Below are positions 5,926-54,471 of a DNA stretch of 64,000 nucleotides, in pieces. The stretch comes from Aurantimonas coralicida (GTDB lineage Bacteria; Pseudomonadota; Alphaproteobacteria; Rhizobiales; Rhizobiaceae). The position numbers were made by a program, and so were the translations under genes. How positions within the stretch are numbered: position 1 is the first letter of the stretch; every line of letters begins with the position of its first letter. The notes below the pieces were generated by a model, which had not been told where the DNA came from, did not search any database, and worked only from the letters and a program-made list of their open reading frames with translations. The stretch lies in NCBI GenBank assembly GCA_011050685.1, contig DRFF01000067.1, positions 1 through 64,000 on the forward strand. The letters are read 5' to 3'.

Positions 5926-7347
5926 ATGGCCGAGAACAAGATCTTCGCCGGGCCGCGCATCCGGCGCATTCGCAACGGGCTCGGCCTGACCCAGACGGCG
6001 ATGGCCGAAGGGCTCGGCATTTCGCCGTCCTATCTCAACCTCATCGAACGCAACCAGCGGCCGCTGACGGTGCAGCTCATCCTGCGCCTATCGGGATCCT
6101 ACGACATCGACCTGAGCGATCTTCAGAGCGGTGAATCGCGGGGTTCGGTCAACGAATTGAAGGTGGTCTTCTCCGATCCGCTTCTGGCGGGGGAATTGCC
6201 GGGCGAACAGGAGCTTCTGGAGATCGCCGACGCGGCTCCGAACGCCGCCGCCGGCATCGTCAAGCTGCATCGGGCCTATCGCGAGCAGCAGGGACGGCTG
6301 ACCGATCTGTCCGAGCTTTTGGCGCGTGAGGGCCGCGAGACGCGGCTGTCCGGCACGCGGCTACCGATCGACGAGGTGCGCGAGGTCTTCGAAACCAGGC
6401 CGAACTATTTGGCGGCGATCGAGACCGCGGCGGAAGGCTTCCATCAGGCTCTCGCCCCCGGTGACGATCTGATGGCCGCGTTGAAAGCGTGGATGCGCAA
6501 GGAGCACGATGTCGCCGTGCGCGTCCTGCCGGTGCAGACCATGCCGAACTGGCGCCGCCGCTTCGATCGCCATTCTCGCCGGCTGTTCCTCTCCGAGCGG
6601 CTGGCGCCGGCCGACCGCATTCGCGAGACCGCCCTGGAGGCCTGTCAGCTCGCATTCGGCGACGTCATCGCCGCCGAGACCGAGGCCTTCGGCTTTTCCA
6701 GCGACGAGGCCCGGCGGCTCGGCCGTTTCGAGCTTTTGCGCTATGCCGCGCATGCGCTGATGATGCCCTATGGCGCCTTTCAGTCCGCGGCCGAGCGCGC
6801 GGCCTACGACATCGACGTCCTGCGCGGGCGCTTCCAGGTCTCGTTCGAGCAGGTGGCGAACCGGCTGACCATGTTGCAGCGGCAGGGCGCGCCGGGGGTG
6901 CCCTTCTTCATGCTGGAGGTCGACAATGCCGGCAATCGCTTCCGCCGCGCCGGCGCGCGGGGCTTTCCGGTCCAGCGTTTCGGCGGCGGCTGTCCCAAGC
7001 TACCGATCCACGCCGCGTTCGCCCAGCCGGGGCAGATTTTGGTCGAGACCGCCGAAATGCCAGACGGGGCGGAGTTTTTGCTGTTCGCGCGAACCCTGGA
7101 GGGCCTGCAGGCGGGTTTCGAGGAACGCCCCCGGCGGACCGCGATCCTGATCGGCTGCGACATCGGCTTCAAGGACGAGACGGTCTATGGCCGCCATCTC
7201 GGCTCGAAATCCGTGGCGACGAAGATCGGGCCGGCGTGCCGGCTGTGCGAGCGGCAAGGCTGTCTTGCGCGCGCCGAGCCCCCCCTGACCCGGCCGCTCG
7301 GCCTCGACGAGATGGTCACCGGGCTCAGCGCGTTTGATTTCCAGTAG
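5926..7347 (+). CDS. XRE-family short-chain fatty-acyl regulator (RamB/ScfR type)
   Basis: The 473-residue protein starts with an XRE helix-turn-helix (RIRRIRNGLGLTQTAMAE through SPSYLNLIERNQRPL, residues 9-46). A central region resembles the IrrE/ImmA peptidase-like domain, and the C-terminal DUF2083-type region carries clustered cysteines (FGGGCPKLP and CRLCERQGC). Regulators of this family control acetate and propionate genes such as aceA. It lies divergent from aceA, so regulation of aceA is the natural reading. Whether it activates or represses, and which acyl-CoA it senses, is not visible. Confidence 0.88.
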   Translation: MAENKIFAGPRIRRIRNGLGLTQTAMAEGLGISPSYLNLIERNQRPLTVQLILRLSGSYDIDLSDLQSGESRGSVNELKVVFSDPLLAGELPGEQELLEIADAAPNAAAGIVKLHRAYREQQGRLTDLSELLAREGRETRLSGTRLPIDEVREVFETRPNYLAAIETAAEGFHQALAPGDDLMAALKAWMRKEHDVAVRVLPVQTMPNWRRRFDRHSRRLFLSERLAPADRIRETALEACQLAFGDVIAAETEAFGFSSDEARRLGRFELLRYAAHALMMPYGAFQSAAERAAYDIDVLRGRFQVSFEQVANRLTMLQRQGAPGVPFFMLEVDNAGNRFRRAGARGFPVQRFGGGCPKLPIHAAFAQPGQILVETAEMPDGAEFLLFARTLEGLQAGFEERPRRTAILIGCDIGFKDETVYGRHLGSKSVATKIGPACRLCERQGCLARAEPPLTRPLGLDEMVTGLSAFDFQ

Positions 7348-8563: not shown

Positions 8564-8655
8564 CGAATTTCGAGCTTTTCGCATATTTCGGCGCGCCAGC
8601 CCTCATGTTGGGCTCCGCCCTGGTACTTGCTTGGTACGCCAAGCATCACGCGTGA
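8560..8655 (+). CDS. single-helix membrane micropeptide (31 aa)
   Basis: The frame MTNFELFAYFGAPALMLGSA ... WYAKHHA starts at the ATG at 8560, overlapping the preceding stop (ATGA), with GAGGAGG upstream at suitable spacing. It is one transmembrane helix with a short basic tail. The strong ribosome-binding site and start-stop overlap make it more than a chance frame. Its partner is the 74-residue two-helix protein; together they look like a small membrane complex of unknown role. Confidence 0.65.
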   Translation: MTNFELFAYFGAPALMLGSALVLAWYAKHHA

Positions 8656-50315: not shown

Positions 50316-51038
50316 TCAGCCGCCGAACAGCACCGAGAGGACGTCGGTCTTGACCGCGCCGCGCTCGGCATAAACGCCCTTCGATCCCTCGCCGCGAGGG
50401 CCGATGACTACCACCTTCGAGCCGCTCGGCACCCGGCTGTAGAGGTGCTCGACGTCTTCGTTCATCATCCGGATGCAGCCCGACGACATGTTCTGGCCGA
50501 TGGTCCAGGGCTGGTTGGTGCCATGGATGCGGAACAGCGAATCGCGACCGCCGCGATAAAGATACAGAGCCCGCGCGCCGAGCGGGTTGCCGGGGCCGCC
50601 CTTCATGTAGGCAGGCAGGATGCGACCCTTCTTGCGCTCGCGCGCGATCATCGTGGCGGGGGGCGTCCAGCCCGGCCATTCCGCCTTGCGGCCCACGCTC
50701 ATGCGACCGGACCAGCCGAAGCCTTCCTTGCCGACGCCGACGCCGTAGCGGGTCGCCATGCCGTTGCCCTCGACGAAATACAGATACTTCTTGCTCGAAT
50801 CGACGATCACCGTGCCGGGCTTTTCCTTGGTGTCGATGCGCACTTGCGTCCGCTCGAACTTGGCCGCCGGGCGGCGCTGGGAAAGTCGCCGGCCCTGGGG
50901 CGTGGCAGCGCTTGCCGTCACCCAGGAGTTGGTGGCGTAATCGTAGCGCCGGGTTTCCTGTGCGCCGGCCTCGACGGTCAGCACCAGCGCCAAGGCCGCT
51001 CCCAGGCCGGCTGCCGCCCATTGCGTCCATTTGTTCAT
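50316..51038 (-). CDS. L,D-transpeptidase (YkuD family), copy 1
   Basis: A 240-residue exported enzyme with a signal peptide (MNKWTQWAAAGLGAALALVL... AGAQ) and the YkuD catalytic region IHGTNQPWTIGQNMSSGCIRMMNEDV, with the active cysteine in SSGCIRM. Such enzymes make 3-3 cross-links in peptidoglycan or tether proteins to it. Pairs like this are common in Rhizobiales, where L,D-cross-links support polar growth. It is 126 bases downstream of a paralogue on the same strand. Confidence 0.93.
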   Translation of the reverse strand: MNKWTQWAAAGLGAALALVLTVEAGAQETRRYDYATNSWVTASAATPQGRRLSQRRPAAKFERTQVRIDTKEKPGTVIVDSSKKYLYFVEGNGMATRYGVGVGKEGFGWSGRMSVGRKAEWPGWTPPATMIARERKKGRILPAYMKGGPGNPLGARALYLYRGGRDSLFRIHGTNQPWTIGQNMSSGCIRMMNEDVEHLYSRVPSGSKVVVIGPRGEGSKGVYAERGAVKTDVLSVLFGG

Positions 51039-51164: not shown

Positions 51165-51983
51165 TCAGCGGACGATGACCTTGGTGCCGACCTTTACCTT
51201 GCTGTAGAGCTCCACCACGTCCTGGTTGCGCATGCGGATGCAGCCGGAGGAGACGGCCTTGCCGATCGTCCAGGGCTGGTTGGTGCCGTGGATGCGGTAA
51301 AGCGTCGAGCCGAGATAGAGCGCCCGCGCGCCGAGCGGATTGGCCTCGCCGCCTTCCATGCGCGCCGGCAGGATGCGGCCCTTCTTGCGCTCGCGGGTGA
51401 TCATTTCCTTCGGCGGCGTCCAACTCGGCCATTCGGCCCTGCGGCTGATCTTTTCGGTGCCGCGCCAGCTAAAGCCCTGCTTGCCGACCCCGACGCCGTA
51501 GCGGCGGGCGTTGCCGTTCTTGCCGACGTGATAGAGAAATTTCGATTTTGTATCGATGACGATCGTGCCGGGCGCCTCCTTGCCGCCATAGGCGACGTCC
51601 TGCGGCAAATACACGGGGTCGAGCGCGCGCTGCGGCGCCACGGGTCGACCTTGGGCGTGCGCCAGAACCACGCCCTGCGGAGCGGCGACCGCGCCCGGCG
51701 CGGCGTAGACGGTAGGTATCCGCACCGGCTGTTCGATCAGCACCGGCGTCGTCGCGAGCATCACACCGGAGCGGGCGACAGCCGGGCGCCGCACGGCGGC
51801 GCCGTAATAACCCGGCACGACGCCGCTGCCGGGTGTCAGCTGCAACACCCGTTCGGCGCTGAGATGCGGCGGTAGCGGCACGGCGGCCGGATTGTTATAG
51901 CTGTCATGGGCCAAGCTGGCCGACGGGGCCGCCAACGCCGCCACCAAGGCCGCGAGAATCAAGCAGGCTTTCGTTCGCTTCAT
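51165..51983 (-). CDS. L,D-transpeptidase (YkuD family), copy 2
   Basis: A 272-residue paralogue of the adjacent gene with a signal peptide (MKRTKACLILAALVAALAAP... SLAHD), a proline- and valine-rich linker and the catalytic IHGTNQPWTIGKAVSSGCIRMRNQDV. The two copies share PGTVIVD/PGTIVIDTKSKFLYHVG and ERKKGRILPA blocks, so they arose by tandem duplication. ATG 51983 gives the signal peptide; the longer frame upstream is not needed. Confidence 0.93.
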   Translation of the reverse strand: MKRTKACLILAALVAALAAPSASLAHDSYNNPAAVPLPPHLSAERVLQLTPGSGVVPGYYGAAVRRPAVARSGVMLATTPVLIEQPVRIPTVYAAPGAVAAPQGVVLAHAQGRPVAPQRALDPVYLPQDVAYGGKEAPGTIVIDTKSKFLYHVGKNGNARRYGVGVGKQGFSWRGTEKISRRAEWPSWTPPKEMITRERKKGRILPARMEGGEANPLGARALYLGSTLYRIHGTNQPWTIGKAVSSGCIRMRNQDVVELYSKVKVGTKVIVR

Positions 51984-52195: not shown

Positions 52196-52873
52196 ATGAG
52201 CGCTACCGTTTCGCAGCCGTCCGCCATCGACGCCACCGTTCCAGCCGGCCTGATCCGCGGCGAGGATGGCCTTTTGCGCTGCGCCTGGCACGGCGGCGAC
52301 GCCGCCTATCGTGCCTATCACGACCGCGAATGGGGCCGCCCCTCGGCCGACGACGACCGGCTTTACGAAAAGCTTTGCCTGGAAGGGTTTCAGGCGGGGC
52401 TCTCCTGGCTGACTATCCTCAGAAAGCGCGATGCCTTTCGCGAGGTCTTTCACGGCTTTTCCATCGACCCGGTCGCGGCAATGACCGAGACCGACGTCGA
52501 ACGCCTGGTTCTCGATGCCCGCATCATCCGGCATCGCGGCAAGATCGTCTCGGCGATCCACAACGCCCGCCGCGCGCGCGACATCCGTGTCGAACACGGC
52601 TCGCTCGCGGCCTTCCTATGGGCGCATGAACCCGGTTCCGACGAGCGGCCGGAGGTTCTGACTGGCGCCTGGCTTGCCGCCAACCCGGTAACGCCGGCCT
52701 CGACGCGTCTGTCCAAGGCTCTGAAGCAGGCCGGATTCAGCTTCGTCGGCCCAACCACGGTCTATGCCTTCATGCAGTCGATGGGCTTCGTCAACGACCA
52801 TGTTGAGGGCTGTTGCGTGCGCGTGGCCTGTGAGGCCGAGCGCGCGGCATTCGCGCGGCCGGTGCGAACGTAG
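52196..52873 (+). CDS. tag: DNA-3-methyladenine glycosylase I
   Basis: A 225-residue repair enzyme that removes 3-methyladenine. The Tag fold is shown by LLRCAWHGG, YHDREWGRP, LYEKLCLEGFQAGLSWLTIL (with the catalytic glutamate) and FVGPTTVYAFMQSMGFVNDH. The zinc-binding Cys and His of the family are seen at both ends (CAW, AYHD and DHVEGCC). It is convergent with the DUF2019 array that begins five bases on. Confidence 0.94.
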   Translation: MSATVSQPSAIDATVPAGLIRGEDGLLRCAWHGGDAAYRAYHDREWGRPSADDDRLYEKLCLEGFQAGLSWLTILRKRDAFREVFHGFSIDPVAAMTETDVERLVLDARIIRHRGKIVSAIHNARRARDIRVEHGSLAAFLWAHEPGSDERPEVLTGAWLAANPVTPASTRLSKALKQAGFSFVGPTTVYAFMQSMGFVNDHVEGCCVRVACEAERAAFARPVRT

Positions 52874-52878
52874 GATCG

Positions 52879-53250
52879 CTACTGCGGGATGAAGGTTCCG
52901 TCGTCCAAAGCGGCCAATCGCATGCCAGCCTCCAGCTCATAGGGTCCGACCTTCCAACTCGCGATCTCCTCGATCTTGCGCCGCGCCTCCGCCGGAAACA
53001 AGGCGAGCGTCGCGGTCGCCGCGTTCAGCTGCACCTGAATATTCGGATGGTTGAAATAGCGGCTGAGCTGGCGCCGCTGGTCGCCGGGGCGCGCCTTCAA
53101 TTCGTTCTCCACGGCAAATCGCCGCCGCACCAGTCGGTTGATGGTCGCTTGGGCGGATCGCAACTCCGCCTCGTCCTCCGCCACCCCCAATTCGGCAAAA
53201 TAGGCGACGAGATCGTCGACGCTCGCGGTCGTCAGATTGATCGGTCTCAC
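52879..53250 (-). CDS. DUF2019 family protein, array member 1
   Basis: A 123-residue helical (HEAT-like) protein with the DUF2019 landmarks: SVDDLVAYFAELGVAEDEAE, ENELKARPGDQRRQL, HPNIQVQLNAATATLA and the tail EAGMRLAALDDGTFIPQ. The start is GTG at 53250, which overlaps the stop of a small frame (GTGA). It is the distal gene of a tandem array on the minus strand. The function of DUF2019 is unknown; small HEAT-like proteins in tandem copies often turn out to be immunity proteins, which is inference here. Confidence 0.85.
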   Translation of the reverse strand: MRPINLTTASVDDLVAYFAELGVAEDEAELRSAQATINRLVRRRFAVENELKARPGDQRRQLSRYFNHPNIQVQLNAATATLALFPAEARRKIEEIASWKVGPYELEAGMRLAALDDGTFIPQ

Positions 53251-53318
53251 GGCTTGAGAATCCCTTCGTTCCAGAGCCTGGCGAGGCCGATCCACAAATC
53301 GCGTCTGTCAGCTCCCAT
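53247..53318 (-). pseudogene. possible DUF2019-like tail remnant (23 aa)
   Basis: An open frame from ATG 53318 encodes MGADRRDLWIGLARLWNEGI plus LKP and stops at 53247, overlapping the next GTG. The ending G(I/V)LKP recalls DUF2019 C-termini, which end in patterns like GxFxP. It sits between two intact DUF2019 genes and could be what is left of a third copy, or a coupling peptide. Confidence 0.35.
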
Positions 53319-53333
53319 TGCGCATTGCGAGCC

Positions 53334-53708
53334 TTACTCCGGAACGAACCGTCCATTATCGAGCATCTGAATCGCCATTCCCGCATCGAGAGCCTGGGGT
53401 CCGGACGCCCATGCCGCGACGGCTTCCAGCGTCTCGCGCGCCAGGAGCGGTGCCACGATGAGCGTCGCGTGGGCCGCGTTCAAACGGATTTGCGCGTTGG
53501 AATGTTCGAGCAGCGGAACCAGCGCCCGTCGCTGATCGCCTTCGCGGCGTTTCAGTTCTTTCTCATACGCGAGCTGGCGACGCGCCAGCCGATTGAACGT
53601 GCTGGCGTCGTCCGCTTCTATCGCCTTGTCCTGGGCGAGGCCGATCGCGATGTACTCTCGGACGATTTCTTCGACCGTGAGTTCGGTAAGTTGGGGTGCG
53701 GTCATCAT
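53334..53708 (-). CDS. DUF2019 family protein, array member 2
   Basis: A complete 124-residue member: LTVEEIVREYIAIGLAQDKA, EKELKRREGDQRRALVPLL, HSNAQIRLNAAHATLIVAP and the tail DAGMAIQMLDNGRFVPE. The ATG pair at 53708/53705 is preceded by AAGG in the end of the upstream copy. It is close in length to member 1 but clearly diverged from it, so the duplication is old. Confidence 0.88.
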   Translation of the reverse strand: MMTAPQLTELTVEEIVREYIAIGLAQDKAIEADDASTFNRLARRQLAYEKELKRREGDQRRALVPLLEHSNAQIRLNAAHATLIVAPLLARETLEAVAAWASGPQALDAGMAIQMLDNGRFVPE

Positions 53709-53744
53709 TTCAGAACCTTCGCATTTCGTAGCGTCGGCATCGCC

Positions 53745-53866
53745 TCACTCCGGCTTGTAGATACCCTGATCCCAGGCCCGGATCGACATTCCTGCGCCAC
53801 TCCGATTTCGGAGTAACGGGTGACCAGTTGTTCGATCGTCAGTTCGCCGCGTTTTGCTCGTGTCAT
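53745..53866 (-). pseudogene. DUF2019 copy with a large internal deletion
   Basis: It begins as a normal member at ATG 53866 (MTRAKRGELTIEQLVTRYSE, IGVAQE) and then jumps into a different frame that reads AGMSIRAWDQGIYKPE to a stop at 53745, the expected C-terminus. About 80 codons between are missing and the total of 122 bases is not a multiple of three. The junction lies in GTGGCGCAGGAATG, where short homology may have driven the deletion. Read straight through, the frame ends off-family at about 53705. Confidence 0.8.
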
Positions 53867-53870
53867 GGCT

Positions 53871-54254
53871 TCAGTGCTTCCGCTTGGCCGCATCTCTCCG
53901 CGCGCCGCGAAGCCACATGCCGGCGTCGGCTGCTTGTGGGAAACGTTGGGAGGCTCTGATTTCCTCTAACAACGCGGCGGCAGCTACGGGGGCGACTGAG
54001 CGGCATGCACGAGCGGCTTGTGGTCGCACCTGGATGTTTGGATGATCGAACAGCCCCATCAGCGCCCGTCTTTGATCGCCTGCGCGGCTCTCAAGTTCCG
54101 TCTCGATCGCCATCACGATGGGAAATGTCGCGTTGTAGCGGCGAGAATCCTCGACCTCGTTTGCATCGAACTGCCGCAGACACAAAGCGACGTAGGCTGC
54201 CAAAAGCTCATCAACTGCCATCCCGCCGAGATTCTTTTCTGACACTAGCGTCAC
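53871..54254 (-). CDS. DUF2019 family protein, array member 4 (altered C-terminus)
   Basis: A 127-residue member with MAVDELLAAYVALCLRQFDA, ETELESRAGDQRRALMGLF, HPNIQVRPQAARACRSVAP and FPQAADAGMWLRG. After that it ends RRDAAKRKH, unlike the family. A shifted frame over the same bases ends QAEALKP with a stop overlapping the next ATG (ATGA), so a late frameshift is likely. The start is GTG at 54254, overlapping an upstream stop. It is the promoter-proximal member. Confidence 0.8.
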   Translation of the reverse strand: MTLVSEKNLGGMAVDELLAAYVALCLRQFDANEVEDSRRYNATFPIVMAIETELESRAGDQRRALMGLFDHPNIQVRPQAARACRSVAPVAAAALLEEIRASQRFPQAADAGMWLRGARRDAAKRKH

Positions 54255-54358
54255 GGTTTCAGAACTCCTTGTTCAACAAGCGCCTCTAGGCCAGCTTCGT
54301 CAGAGCCATAGTGTCTGTTGCCACGGTGGATAGGAAGGCCGCGACACCAAACACGGTC
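54251..54358 (-). pseudogene. C-terminal remnant upstream of the DUF2019 array
   Basis: A frame open from the MITE-like element reads RGLPIHRGNRHYGSDEAGLE then ALVEQGVLKP and stops at 54251, overlapping the GTG of the first DUF2019 gene. The AGL-x-ALxxGxLKP ending fits a DUF2019 tail, but the residues before it do not match the family. It has no start codon and its 5' end runs into the repeat at 54359, so it may be a gene cut by that element. Confidence 0.4.
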
Positions 54359-54471
54359 GTCATTCCGGCCTTGAGCCGGGATCCATGCCAAGCCGCCCGA
54401 ACCGCCGATCCGTCACCGGAGAGGGTGGGACAAACATCGCGGCATGGGTCCCGGCTCAGGGCCGGGATGAC
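54359..54471. repeat. 113-bp palindromic MITE/REP-like element
   Basis: The left end GTCATTCCGGCCTTGAGCCG and the right end CGGCTCAGGGCCGGGATGAC are inverted repeats, with ATCCATGCC and GGCATGGGT just inside. Elements with these GTCATTCC/GGATGAC ends are spread through alphaproteobacterial genomes. There is no coding frame in it. It borders the DUF2019 array. Confidence 0.8.

What the first reader, a model, noticed from the sequence alone, without database searches (positions are those of the whole stretch)
52879..54471. Decaying tandem array of DUF2019 genes bounded by a MITE-like element
Three full-length but diverged DUF2019 genes, one internally deleted copy and two tail-like remnants lie head to tail on one strand, joined by GTGA/ATGA overlaps. 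Repeated start-stop overlaps and tail pieces ending in GxLKP suggest repeated duplication and loss within one operon. Multi-copy small HEAT-like proteins are often immunity proteins facing polymorphic toxins. No toxin gene is in the window, so these may be orphan immunity genes or a family with its own role. The array direction and the element at 54.36 kb suggest the 5' end was truncated by insertion.
Basis: partly seen in the sequence, partly recalled or inferred. Interest (0 to 1): 0.7.

Follow-up and report, generated by a model that had tools for sequence, protein, structure and literature searches.

The report
Orphan antidotes left by lost toxins
A row of small genes looks like antidotes whose partner toxin genes have been deleted down to their last few codons, and relatives of these toxin-antidote pairs sit inside the virus-like gene transfer clusters of other bacteria.

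Summary
The array is real: three full-length DUF2019 genes (A, C, D; PF09450 E 1.2e-26 to 7.6e-28) and one broken copy (B), minus strand, 54254-52879. Three of the "tails" are not DUF2019 remnants. They are the last 8-15 codons of deleted toxin-like genes, which congeneric genomes still carry directly upstream of the orthologous DUF2019 genes. The toxin is a roughly 280-aa protein with an unnamed HHIVE...N...H domain, predicted beta-beta-alpha. A scan with the toxin alone gave 53 loci; 52 have DUF2019 24-48 bp downstream. The exception, L107, is a partial match 376 bp from a contig end. No toxin was found in the window genome. So this is an orphan "polyimmunity" array, and DUF2019 most likely the toxin's immunity family. 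The palindromic element at 54.36 kb is also in A. marianensis at the matching place; the 5' loss was a deletion beside it. Unexpectedly, 21 of 53 toxin loci have phage-type head genes nearby, and 16 of these fit a gene-transfer-agent "megatron" gene 7.7-16.4 kb downstream (6 seen directly on one contig). Toxicity, neutralisation and delivery are inferred, not tested.

The parts
54251..54299 (-). stub A: last 15 codons plus stop of a deleted toxin gene (..EAGLEALVEQGVLKP*), GTGA overlap with copy A
   Evidence: window 54299-53790 is 92% identical to A. marianensis L027 8599-9108, where the toxin stop ends at 8647; stub 45 of 49 bases; tail score 24.4, 0 of 655 null sites as high
53871..54254 (-). 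copy A, DUF2019 immunity-like gene, 127 aa, GTG start; its own C-terminal end is altered
   Evidence: PF09450 E 1.7e-27; 91-92% aa identity to orthologues directly behind the toxin in A. marianensis and A. marina
53863..53892 (-). possible stub B (..GQAEALKP*), ATGA overlap with copy B; uncertain
   Evidence: overlap seen directly; the corresponding tail in L027 and L028 scores -27.2, inside the null: not supported as a toxin end
53746..53866 (-). copy B, broken DUF2019: head of B joined out of frame to the tail of another copy
   Evidence: no Pfam match; head within the L027 8599-9108 alignment, tail = L027 10111-10164 at 96%
53705..53733 (-). stub C: last 8 codons plus stop of a second toxin gene (LRNAKVLK*), ATGA overlap with copy C
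   Evidence: window 53733-53327 is 91% identical to A. marianensis L033 1901-2307, where an open 281-aa toxin frame stops at 1929; stub 29 of 29 bases; tail score 0.1, above all 655 null sites
53334..53708 (-). copy C, DUF2019 immunity-like gene, 124 aa
   Evidence: PF09450 E 1.2e-26; orthologue follows the open toxin frame in L033
53247..53292 (-). stub D: last 14 codons plus stop of a third toxin gene (IGLARLWNEGILKP*), GTGA overlap with copy D
   Evidence: window 53292-52600 is 92% identical to A. marina L034 6968-7660, where the toxin stops at 7013; stub 39 of 46 bases; tail score 10.3, 0 of 655 null sites as high
52879..53250 (-). copy D, DUF2019 immunity-like gene, 123 aa, GTG start
   Evidence: PF09450 E 7.6e-28; AlphaFold2 pLDDT 96, six helices; PDB 2i9c at Foldseek E 1.8e-8, VIA Z 22.2, rmsd 1.6 over 121 residues
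54357..54473 (.). palindromic repeat element (33-nt arms, 91% complementary); outer side of the deletion that removed the first toxin
   Evidence: inverted repeat; 16 matches in the own genome, several being two arms or two strands of one place; present at the matching place in A. marianensis, L027 7408-7557, 79%

Best explanation
The array is an orphan (toxin-less) homogeneous polyimmunity locus. Ancestrally each DUF2019 gene was the second gene of a two-gene module: a roughly 280-aa antibacterial toxin (N-terminal FNPNQPRxPxGxxxGGxW-type motif, linker, C-terminal HHIVE...N...H domain read as a His-Me/HNH-like nuclease) whose stop codon overlaps the start of the immunity gene (ATGA/GTGA). Modules of several toxin types came together at the hisS/3-methyladenine-glycosylase locus, I infer by exchange between loci, and the toxins were then deleted. 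In the window genome only the last 8-15 toxin codons remain in front of A, C and D. I infer that these stubs survive because they carry the start region of the immunity gene. The HEAT-like DUF2019 proteins are inferred to bind and block the nuclease domain, so the cell should still resist the corresponding toxins from relatives. Shown: gene linkage, stubs, absence of a detectable toxin in the genome as held, open and conserved DUF2019 genes. Inferred: toxicity, nuclease activity, neutralisation, delivery.
For: Toxin scan of genome contigs: 53 loci; DUF2019 starts 24-48 bp after the toxin match in 52. DUF2019 side: 34 loci looked at, 64 domains with intact N-terminus, 30 with a toxin match (E up to 0.1, in some only the last part) directly upstream, 56 with a start-stop overlap; of the other 34, 11 have a stub scoring above the null maximum, 3 of them in the window. 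Of 16 distant class-level DUF2019 loci, 9 have the toxin directly upstream, as do 4 of 4 weak family-level loci. DNA mapping of the three stubs. Own genome: no toxin; 4 of 7 congeners ring in the same search. Toxin and cognate immunity distances correlate over 36 pairs, Mantel r 0.40, 0 of 2000 permutations as high. By my rules toxin broken with immunity intact in 15 loci, the reverse in 1, perhaps 2. dN/dS of A, C, D against orthologues 0.19-0.34; the neighbouring glycosylase 0.24. Toxin model: strand 68-72, strand 95-99, helix 100-111; the 13 entries with VIA Z 2.0-3.5 are nucleases or complexes with an HNH-type domain, some so classed from memory. The N-terminal motif also precedes PF18431 RNAse_A_bac domains.
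Against: No activity is tested. The toxin fold match is weak: best Foldseek E 0.52, most of the 32 Foldseek rows are unrelated proteins, VIA Z at most 3.5; no Pfam family fits above cut-off. dN/dS includes branches in which the toxin is present, so selection in the toxin-less lineage is not isolated. The Mantel correlation could partly reflect species relatedness. Stub B is not supported. Of 34 first-in-array DUF2019 genes, 3 (L031, L134, L141) have neither toxin nor stub; nor do L043, L046, L053/L055 and L129 have the toxin. L107 has a toxin-like match without DUF2019. The four seeds of the toxin scan were themselves chosen beside DUF2019, and relatives share ancestry, so counts are not independent events. 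The genome is held in 202 contigs (98.8% complete), so a toxin in a gap is not excluded.
Confidence: 0.87

Rival explanations
1. Tandem duplication and decay of a DUF2019 gene with an unrelated house-keeping role; the tails are DUF2019 C-termini.
For: DUF2019 C-termini (..GIYKPE..GRFVPE) look somewhat like the tails; across arrays 33 of 88 members are closest to a copy in the same array, so some duplication does occur elsewhere.
Against: The stubs map base for base onto toxin 3' ends. Window copies are 35-43% identical to each other and 88-95% to separate orthologues. C has its own complete end before stub D.
Confidence: 0.03
2. An intracellular toxin-antitoxin (addiction) pair: the toxin is never exported and DUF2019 is its antitoxin. 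(Shares the origin part of the best explanation.)
For: Two-gene overlapping operon; no signal peptide evident by eye; T6SS Hcp found in only 3 of 20 carrier genomes, and no delivery route shown.
Against: A shared N-terminal motif stands before different C-terminal domains, including a CdiA-CT RNase A domain, the layout of delivered polymorphic toxins; antidotes are kept after toxin loss, which addiction does not predict.
Confidence: 0.15
3. The HNH-like protein is a phage/GTA packaging nuclease that DUF2019 restrains in the producer cell; outside GTAs the pair is debris.
For: 16 of 53 toxin loci fit GTA-type clusters; HNH proteins assist packaging in some phages (recalled).
Against: Absent from the three Aurantimonas GTA clusters inspected; at varying places among the head genes; beside unrelated proteins with the same motif; 32 of 53 loci have no such head genes found within reach, though some contigs are short.
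Confidence: 0.1
4. Neutral debris: DUF2019 copies are lagging behind their toxins in decay and do nothing. (Shares the origin part of the best explanation.)
For: Copy B is broken; A's C-terminus is altered; in A. marianensis copy D is itself damaged.
Against: A, C and D stay open at up to 25% synonymous divergence with dN/dS 0.19-0.34; immunity is intact beside 15 broken toxins.
Confidence: 0.15

Closest known systems
Homogeneous polyimmunity loci (Zhang et al. 2012, PMC3482391; passages seen)
   Same: Tandem paralogues of one immunity family, same strand, short spacing, no intact toxin between them, content differs between relatives; its table also lists HEAT repeats as an immunity fold, paired there with Tox-REase-7
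   Different: No word beginning DUF20 occurs in the held text of that paper (first 300,000 of 357,715 characters); here the partner is an HHIVE toxin, and toxin 3' stubs record how the locus formed
Vibrio cholerae T6SS orphan immunity arrays (Kirchberger et al. 2017, PMC5361080; passages seen)
   Same: Modules replace one another, toxin lost, immunity kept; in-array copies derive from other strains rather than from duplication; a shifted effector 3' end is described
   Different: No T6SS Hcp in 17 of 20 carrier genomes searched, window genome included; different protein families; only 8-15 toxin codons left
Orphan cdiA-CT/cdiI modules (Poole et al. 2011, PMC3150448; passages seen)
   Same: Toxin fragment followed by immunity gene, in arrays
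   Different: There toxin-domain fragments are kept; here the toxin domain is deleted
PDB 2i9c, RPA1889 of Rhodopseudomonas palustris (released 2006)
   Same: Same family and fold as copy D: 45% identity, rmsd 1.6 over 121 residues
   Different: Titled as a protein without stated function; its gene neighbours were not reached here (one search failed)
RcGTA-type gene transfer agents
   Same: 16 toxin-DUF2019 loci fit clusters with phage-type head genes and a megatron gene; gene order laid out in 5 and families named in a sixth
   Different: The window array itself is not in a GTA cluster; the GTA cluster of the window genome (C57) has no such insert

Membership tests
DUF2019 (PF09450) | profile match over the curated cut-off | tested here: met
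   A, C and D 93-97 bits against 23.3; B no match
Homogeneous polyimmunity locus | tandem, same-strand paralogues of one immunity family without intact toxin between them | tested here: met
   no toxin found in the own genome
Homogeneous polyimmunity locus | copy number and content vary between relatives | tested here: met
   6, 4 and 3 profile-level copies in the arrays of A. marianensis, A. marina and the window genome; no DUF2019 in 3 of 7 congeners
Polymorphic toxin-immunity system | immunity gene directly downstream of the toxin | tested here: met
   52 of 53 loci
Polymorphic toxin-immunity system | shared N-terminal region with different C-terminal toxin domains | tested here: met
   same motif before PF18431 RNAse_A_bac in two proteins and before other, unnamed domains
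Polymorphic toxin-immunity system | toxicity neutralised by the cognate immunity protein | not testable with these tools
   needs expression assays
HNH / His-Me finger nuclease (toxin domain) | beta-beta-alpha core with HH...N...H | tested here: inconclusive
   predicted beta-beta-alpha; H71 and N94 invariant, H72 and H103 nearly so in 43 sequences; Foldseek best E 0.52, VIA Z 2.0-3.5
Pfam AHH and other named toxin HNH families | profile match over cut-off | tested here: not met
   no Pfam or NCBIfam match above cut-off for the four toxin sequences given
T6SS effector | T6SS in the genome (only Hcp, PF05638, was looked for) | tested here: not met
   Hcp in 3 of 20 carrier genomes; not in the window genome or the 4 congeners searched
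RcGTA-type gene transfer agent (toxin loci elsewhere) | portal, capsid, adaptor, distal tail, hub and megatron families in one cluster | tested here: met
   Bauldia litoralis: TIGR01537, TIGR01554, TIGR02215, TIGR02217, TIGR02218, NF048004 over cut-off; NF058675 tape 126.7 bits, under its 220 cut-off; same order in 5 more by tblastn
MITE | terminal inverted repeats in several copies | tested here: met
   33-nt arms; 16 matches in the own genome, six of 83 or more bases at 82-100% identity, others being arms or the other strand of these or shorter pieces; 40 of 58 candidates scored
MITE | target-site duplication and empty site | not tested
   no empty site compared; a REP-like palindromic repeat is equally possible

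The most novel reading that the evidence does not exclude
RcGTA-type gene transfer agents of Hyphomicrobiales carry interchangeable polymorphic toxin-immunity modules inside their head-gene operon, and the toxins (marked by the FNPNQPRxPxGxxxGGxW motif; once fused to the C-terminus of the GTA portal protein) ride with or are released with GTA particles into recipient cells. DUF2019 is the immunity family for one toxin class, and stand-alone DUF2019 arrays such as the one in the window are the recipients' protection against GTA-borne toxins, so that gene transfer becomes selective for kin.
Probability: 0.3. Interest if true: 0.92.

Novelty: new variant of a known kind. Interest (0 to 1): 0.74.

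Why it matters
It suggests a function for a domain of unknown function whose structure has been public since 2006 without a stated role (2i9c), and pairs it with a toxin family that has no Pfam or NCBIfam name. The stubs are direct fossils of how a toxin-less immunity array arises: the toxin goes, its last codons and the antidote stay. And the same modules inside gene transfer agent clusters, which I did not see described in four searches of an open-access library (listings, with passages of two papers), make a testable link between gene transfer agents and antibacterial warfare.

Tried and rejected
Tails as DUF2019 C-termini: rejected for A, C and D by DNA mapping. Element insertion as cause of truncation: rejected, as the element precedes a longer toxin gene in A. 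marianensis. A toxin stub before copy B: the score does not support it. T6SS delivery: Hcp absent in 17 of 20 genomes (no other secretion system was looked for). Plasmid carriage: one weak hit of 28% coverage. Isolated-phage carriage: no match in the phage collection for one toxin query. PDB sequence relatives of the toxin: none; Foldseek gave nothing under E 0.5, and absence from the structural lists excludes no family. The first stub score had a faulty null because short peptides scored zero; one search replaced it. In one search the base counts for stubs A and D were out of register; one search replaced them. The neighbourhood of RPA1889 was not reached. Literature: the single papers found for DUF2019 and for PF09450 give the family no immunity role in the passages seen.

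Rows dropped or rules behind counts: the toxin alignment and profile left out sequences with internal stops or cut ends (43 of 53 used); L059 repeats L058. The Mantel test used 36 pairs. The DUF2019 seed used 39 sequences. The structure alignment of DUF2019 took 91 of 127 candidates. In one search a toxin counts as broken if its frame has an internal stop, or is under 200 aa without the motif and not at a contig edge; L085, whose DUF2019 is split over two frames, was not scored for immunity. Toxin-side and DUF2019-side loci overlap in part (for example L028 = L056, L033 = L063, L034 = L066). The megatron search took 39 genomes, 35 of them reached through toxin loci out of 53. In one search, 3 of the 16 class-level loci (L040, L042, L048) have under 340 bp upstream.

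Papers: passages only of PMC3482391, PMC5361080, PMC3150448, PMC12844201, PMC12421959, PMC13236601; abstract, section list and passages of PMC11409702; abstract, section list and section 8 of PMC13392607; all others as search listings.
Full report
WHAT IS THERE. On the minus strand, between a histidyl-tRNA synthetase gene (start about 54822, plus strand; recognised by eye) and a 3-methyladenine glycosylase gene (52196-52873; PF03352), lie DUF2019 copies A, B (broken), C and D. A, C and D match PF09450 well above cut-off; B does not match. These three are the only PF09450 matches in the genome as held. Short reading frames ending in xLKP or VLK stop at a codon that overlaps the next start (ATGA or GTGA).

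WHAT THE TAILS ARE. Congeneric genomes keep the missing pieces. In both, a toxin-like gene ends ..GLDAL(V/F)EQGVLKP* directly before the orthologue of copy A; in A. marina it is open over 283 aa, in A. marianensis its N-terminal part is out of frame. A second toxin in A. marianensis, open over 281 aa, ends ..LRNAKVLK* before the orthologue of copy C, and one in A. marina ends ..KEGILKP* before the orthologue of copy D, its N-terminal part being out of frame. BLASTN homology of the window to these loci begins 49, 29 and 46 nt before the end of the toxin stop codons and runs on through the DUF2019 gene; over these bits 45 of 49, 29 of 29 and 39 of 46 bases agree. So the tails before A, C and D are toxin stubs. 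Against 655 start-stop overlap sites elsewhere in the window they score above all (24.4, 0.1, 10.3; maximum of the null -5.7). For B the test fails on the corresponding tails of the congeners (-27.2). About 1 kb between the palindromic element and stub A is missing relative to A. marianensis, which has the element in the same place.

THE PARTNER FAMILY. DUF2019 is not common: 9 of 60 relatives, 30 of 297 genomes of the family and 8 of 385 of the class have it (each tally counts the window genome). Scanning one genome for each of 84,980 species with an alignment of four toxin C-termini, all taken from beside DUF2019, gave 53 loci. A home-made DUF2019 profile found DUF2019 on the same strand 24-48 bp behind the toxin match in 52; in L107 the match is partial, the contig ends 376 bp further on and no DUF2019 was found. 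Coming from DUF2019, 30 of 64 domains have a toxin match directly upstream (E up to 0.1; the weakest, 9e-2, is a stub-length match), and of 34 first-in-array copies 26 have it, 5 have a stub and 3 (L031, L134, L141) neither (my count from the listing). Weak, distant DUF2019 matches from other families of the class also have it: 9 of 16 loci, three others having under 340 bp upstream and four (L043, L046, L053/L055 of one array) having none; 4 of 4 weak family-level loci have it, and of four further family-level loci L120, L126 and L128 have it and L129 does not. Toxin and cognate immunity divergence correlate (36 pairs, r 0.40, 0 of 2000 permutations), which species relatedness could partly cause. 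The toxin is broken while immunity is intact in 15 loci; the reverse is seen in one (L071), perhaps also in L085.

WHAT THE TOXIN LOOKS LIKE. No Pfam or NCBIfam family fits above cut-off. The consensus is GyDxHHIVE...N.VRIP...H.eI..WY...PR.yLrgk.W.eR..vGl.aL...gVLKP. AlphaFold2 gives mean pLDDT 87.7, block means of 95-98 from residue 51 on, with strand-strand-helix around HHIVE and the conserved N and H. Foldseek found nothing under E 0.5 and mostly unrelated proteins, though Cas9 and Cap5 recur; the 13 entries with VIA Z 2.0-3.5 are nucleases or complexes with HNH-type domains such as Cas9 HNH, Cap5 and Gme HNH, some so classed from memory. I read it as a divergent His-Me nuclease, at moderate confidence. 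In front lies a motif of the form FNPNQPRVPxGxxxGGxW, found by pattern in 33 of the 53 loci, three of them in a variant form (L076, L095, L098); the rest are cut, frameshifted or lack it. The same motif precedes other domains, including the CdiA-CT RNase A domain PF18431 in two proteins (E 5e-17 and 4e-16), so this looks like a polymorphic toxin class.

DUF2019 ITSELF. Copy D folds as six helices (pLDDT 96) and matches PDB 2i9c, RPA1889 of R. palustris, Z 22.2, rmsd 1.6 over 121 residues. dN/dS of A, C and D against congeneric orthologues is 0.19-0.34, like the glycosylase next door at 0.24; this includes branches where the toxin is present.

STATUS OF THE WINDOW GENOME. Neither the toxin nor the N-terminal motif was found in it (genome in 202 contigs, 98.8% complete), while 4 of 7 congeners have a toxin match. 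Among these toxins are open, frameshifted, interrupted or reduced to a tail, a graded series of loss.

THE GTA LINK. Twenty-six IMG/VR loci match the toxin, 23 with DUF2019 behind it; of the other three, two run into contig ends and one (L195) is a doubtful match. Ten proteins from four of these loci include PHROG matches to terminase, portal, head protease, major head protein and head-tail adaptor. Of the 53 genome loci, 21 have matches to such proteins within reach. For 16 of these 21 a GTA_megatron match lies 7.7-16.4 kb downstream, collinear, at coordinates that fit the same contig (against the ranges; distances); in 6 of the 16 I saw toxin and megatron on one contig. L064, L068 and L085 have none, L076 and L098 only partial matches. 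By the rules, of these 16 toxins 8 are open, 5 broken (L060, L090, L092, L096, L106) and 3 cut by contig ends, so the reading frame is not always kept. In Bauldia litoralis (L096, toxin broken) the families of a GTA cluster are named by NCBIfam. In five further genomes the order terminase (outside the fetched stretch in one)-portal-protease-capsid-adaptor-tape-distal tail-hub-megatron is complete with the toxin-DUF2019 pair between portal and capsid, whereas the clusters of the window genome and two congeners have no toxin or DUF2019 match. Other motif-bearing proteins sit in the same clusters, and in Hyphomicrobium zavarzinii the portal protein itself (PF04860, residues 70-398 of 656) continues into the motif and a further domain without a Pfam match, similar by eye to other motif-bearing proteins. 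This supports carriage in GTA operons; delivery by particles is not shown, and GTA against prophage was not settled by a tree. I saw no paper describing it in searches of an open-access library; papers outside that library were not seen.

VERDICT. The locus is an orphan polyimmunity array, a known kind of thing, for a toxin-immunity family that I found unnamed in Pfam and NCBIfam, with fossil stubs that show its making. The wider family's presence in gene transfer agent clusters is the part most likely to surprise a specialist.

Noticed in passing
L201-L205, L035/L197 and the 21 loci: Toxin-DUF2019 pairs among head genes of gene transfer agent type clusters; 16 of 21 fit a megatron gene 7.7-16.4 kb downstream
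   Followed up: partly
L106:692-2662: Portal protein of a GTA-type cluster in Hyphomicrobium zavarzinii continuing into the QPR..GGQW-like motif and a further domain, followed by a small ORF
   Followed up: partly
L203:7152-8024 and L204:8165-8743: Further motif-bearing proteins after the capsid gene of GTA-type clusters: a Cys-rich HNH-like one (by eye), and one with a sub-threshold AHH match
   Followed up: partly
L028:7309-8160; L033 toxin: GIGHNGGPPLEDP segment between the N-terminal motif and the toxin domain of the Aurantimonas toxins; recalled from memory as recurring in unrelated alphaproteobacterial proteins
   Followed up: no
G000:C57:122043-125912 (L198): The window genome has a GTA-type cluster of its own, on another contig than the array and without such an insert
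   Followed up: yes
G001:C2 (L029): Two toxin copies are frame-broken at the same place (profile position 98/99), suggesting duplication after inactivation or a frameshift site
   Followed up: no
L028 9729-10002 and L033 2341-2598 (oriented): DNA 80-88% similar to the window's glycosylase gene lies behind the arrays at a second locus (near a UvrD-like gene, by eye), suggesting that modules moved between loci with flanking DNA
   Followed up: no
window 50316-51038 and 51165-51983: Two adjacent L,D-transpeptidase (YkuD, PF03734) genes on the minus strand
   Followed up: no
PMC12421959: PF09450 is named there beside a lactonase; probably a slip for another Pfam number (from memory)
   Followed up: no
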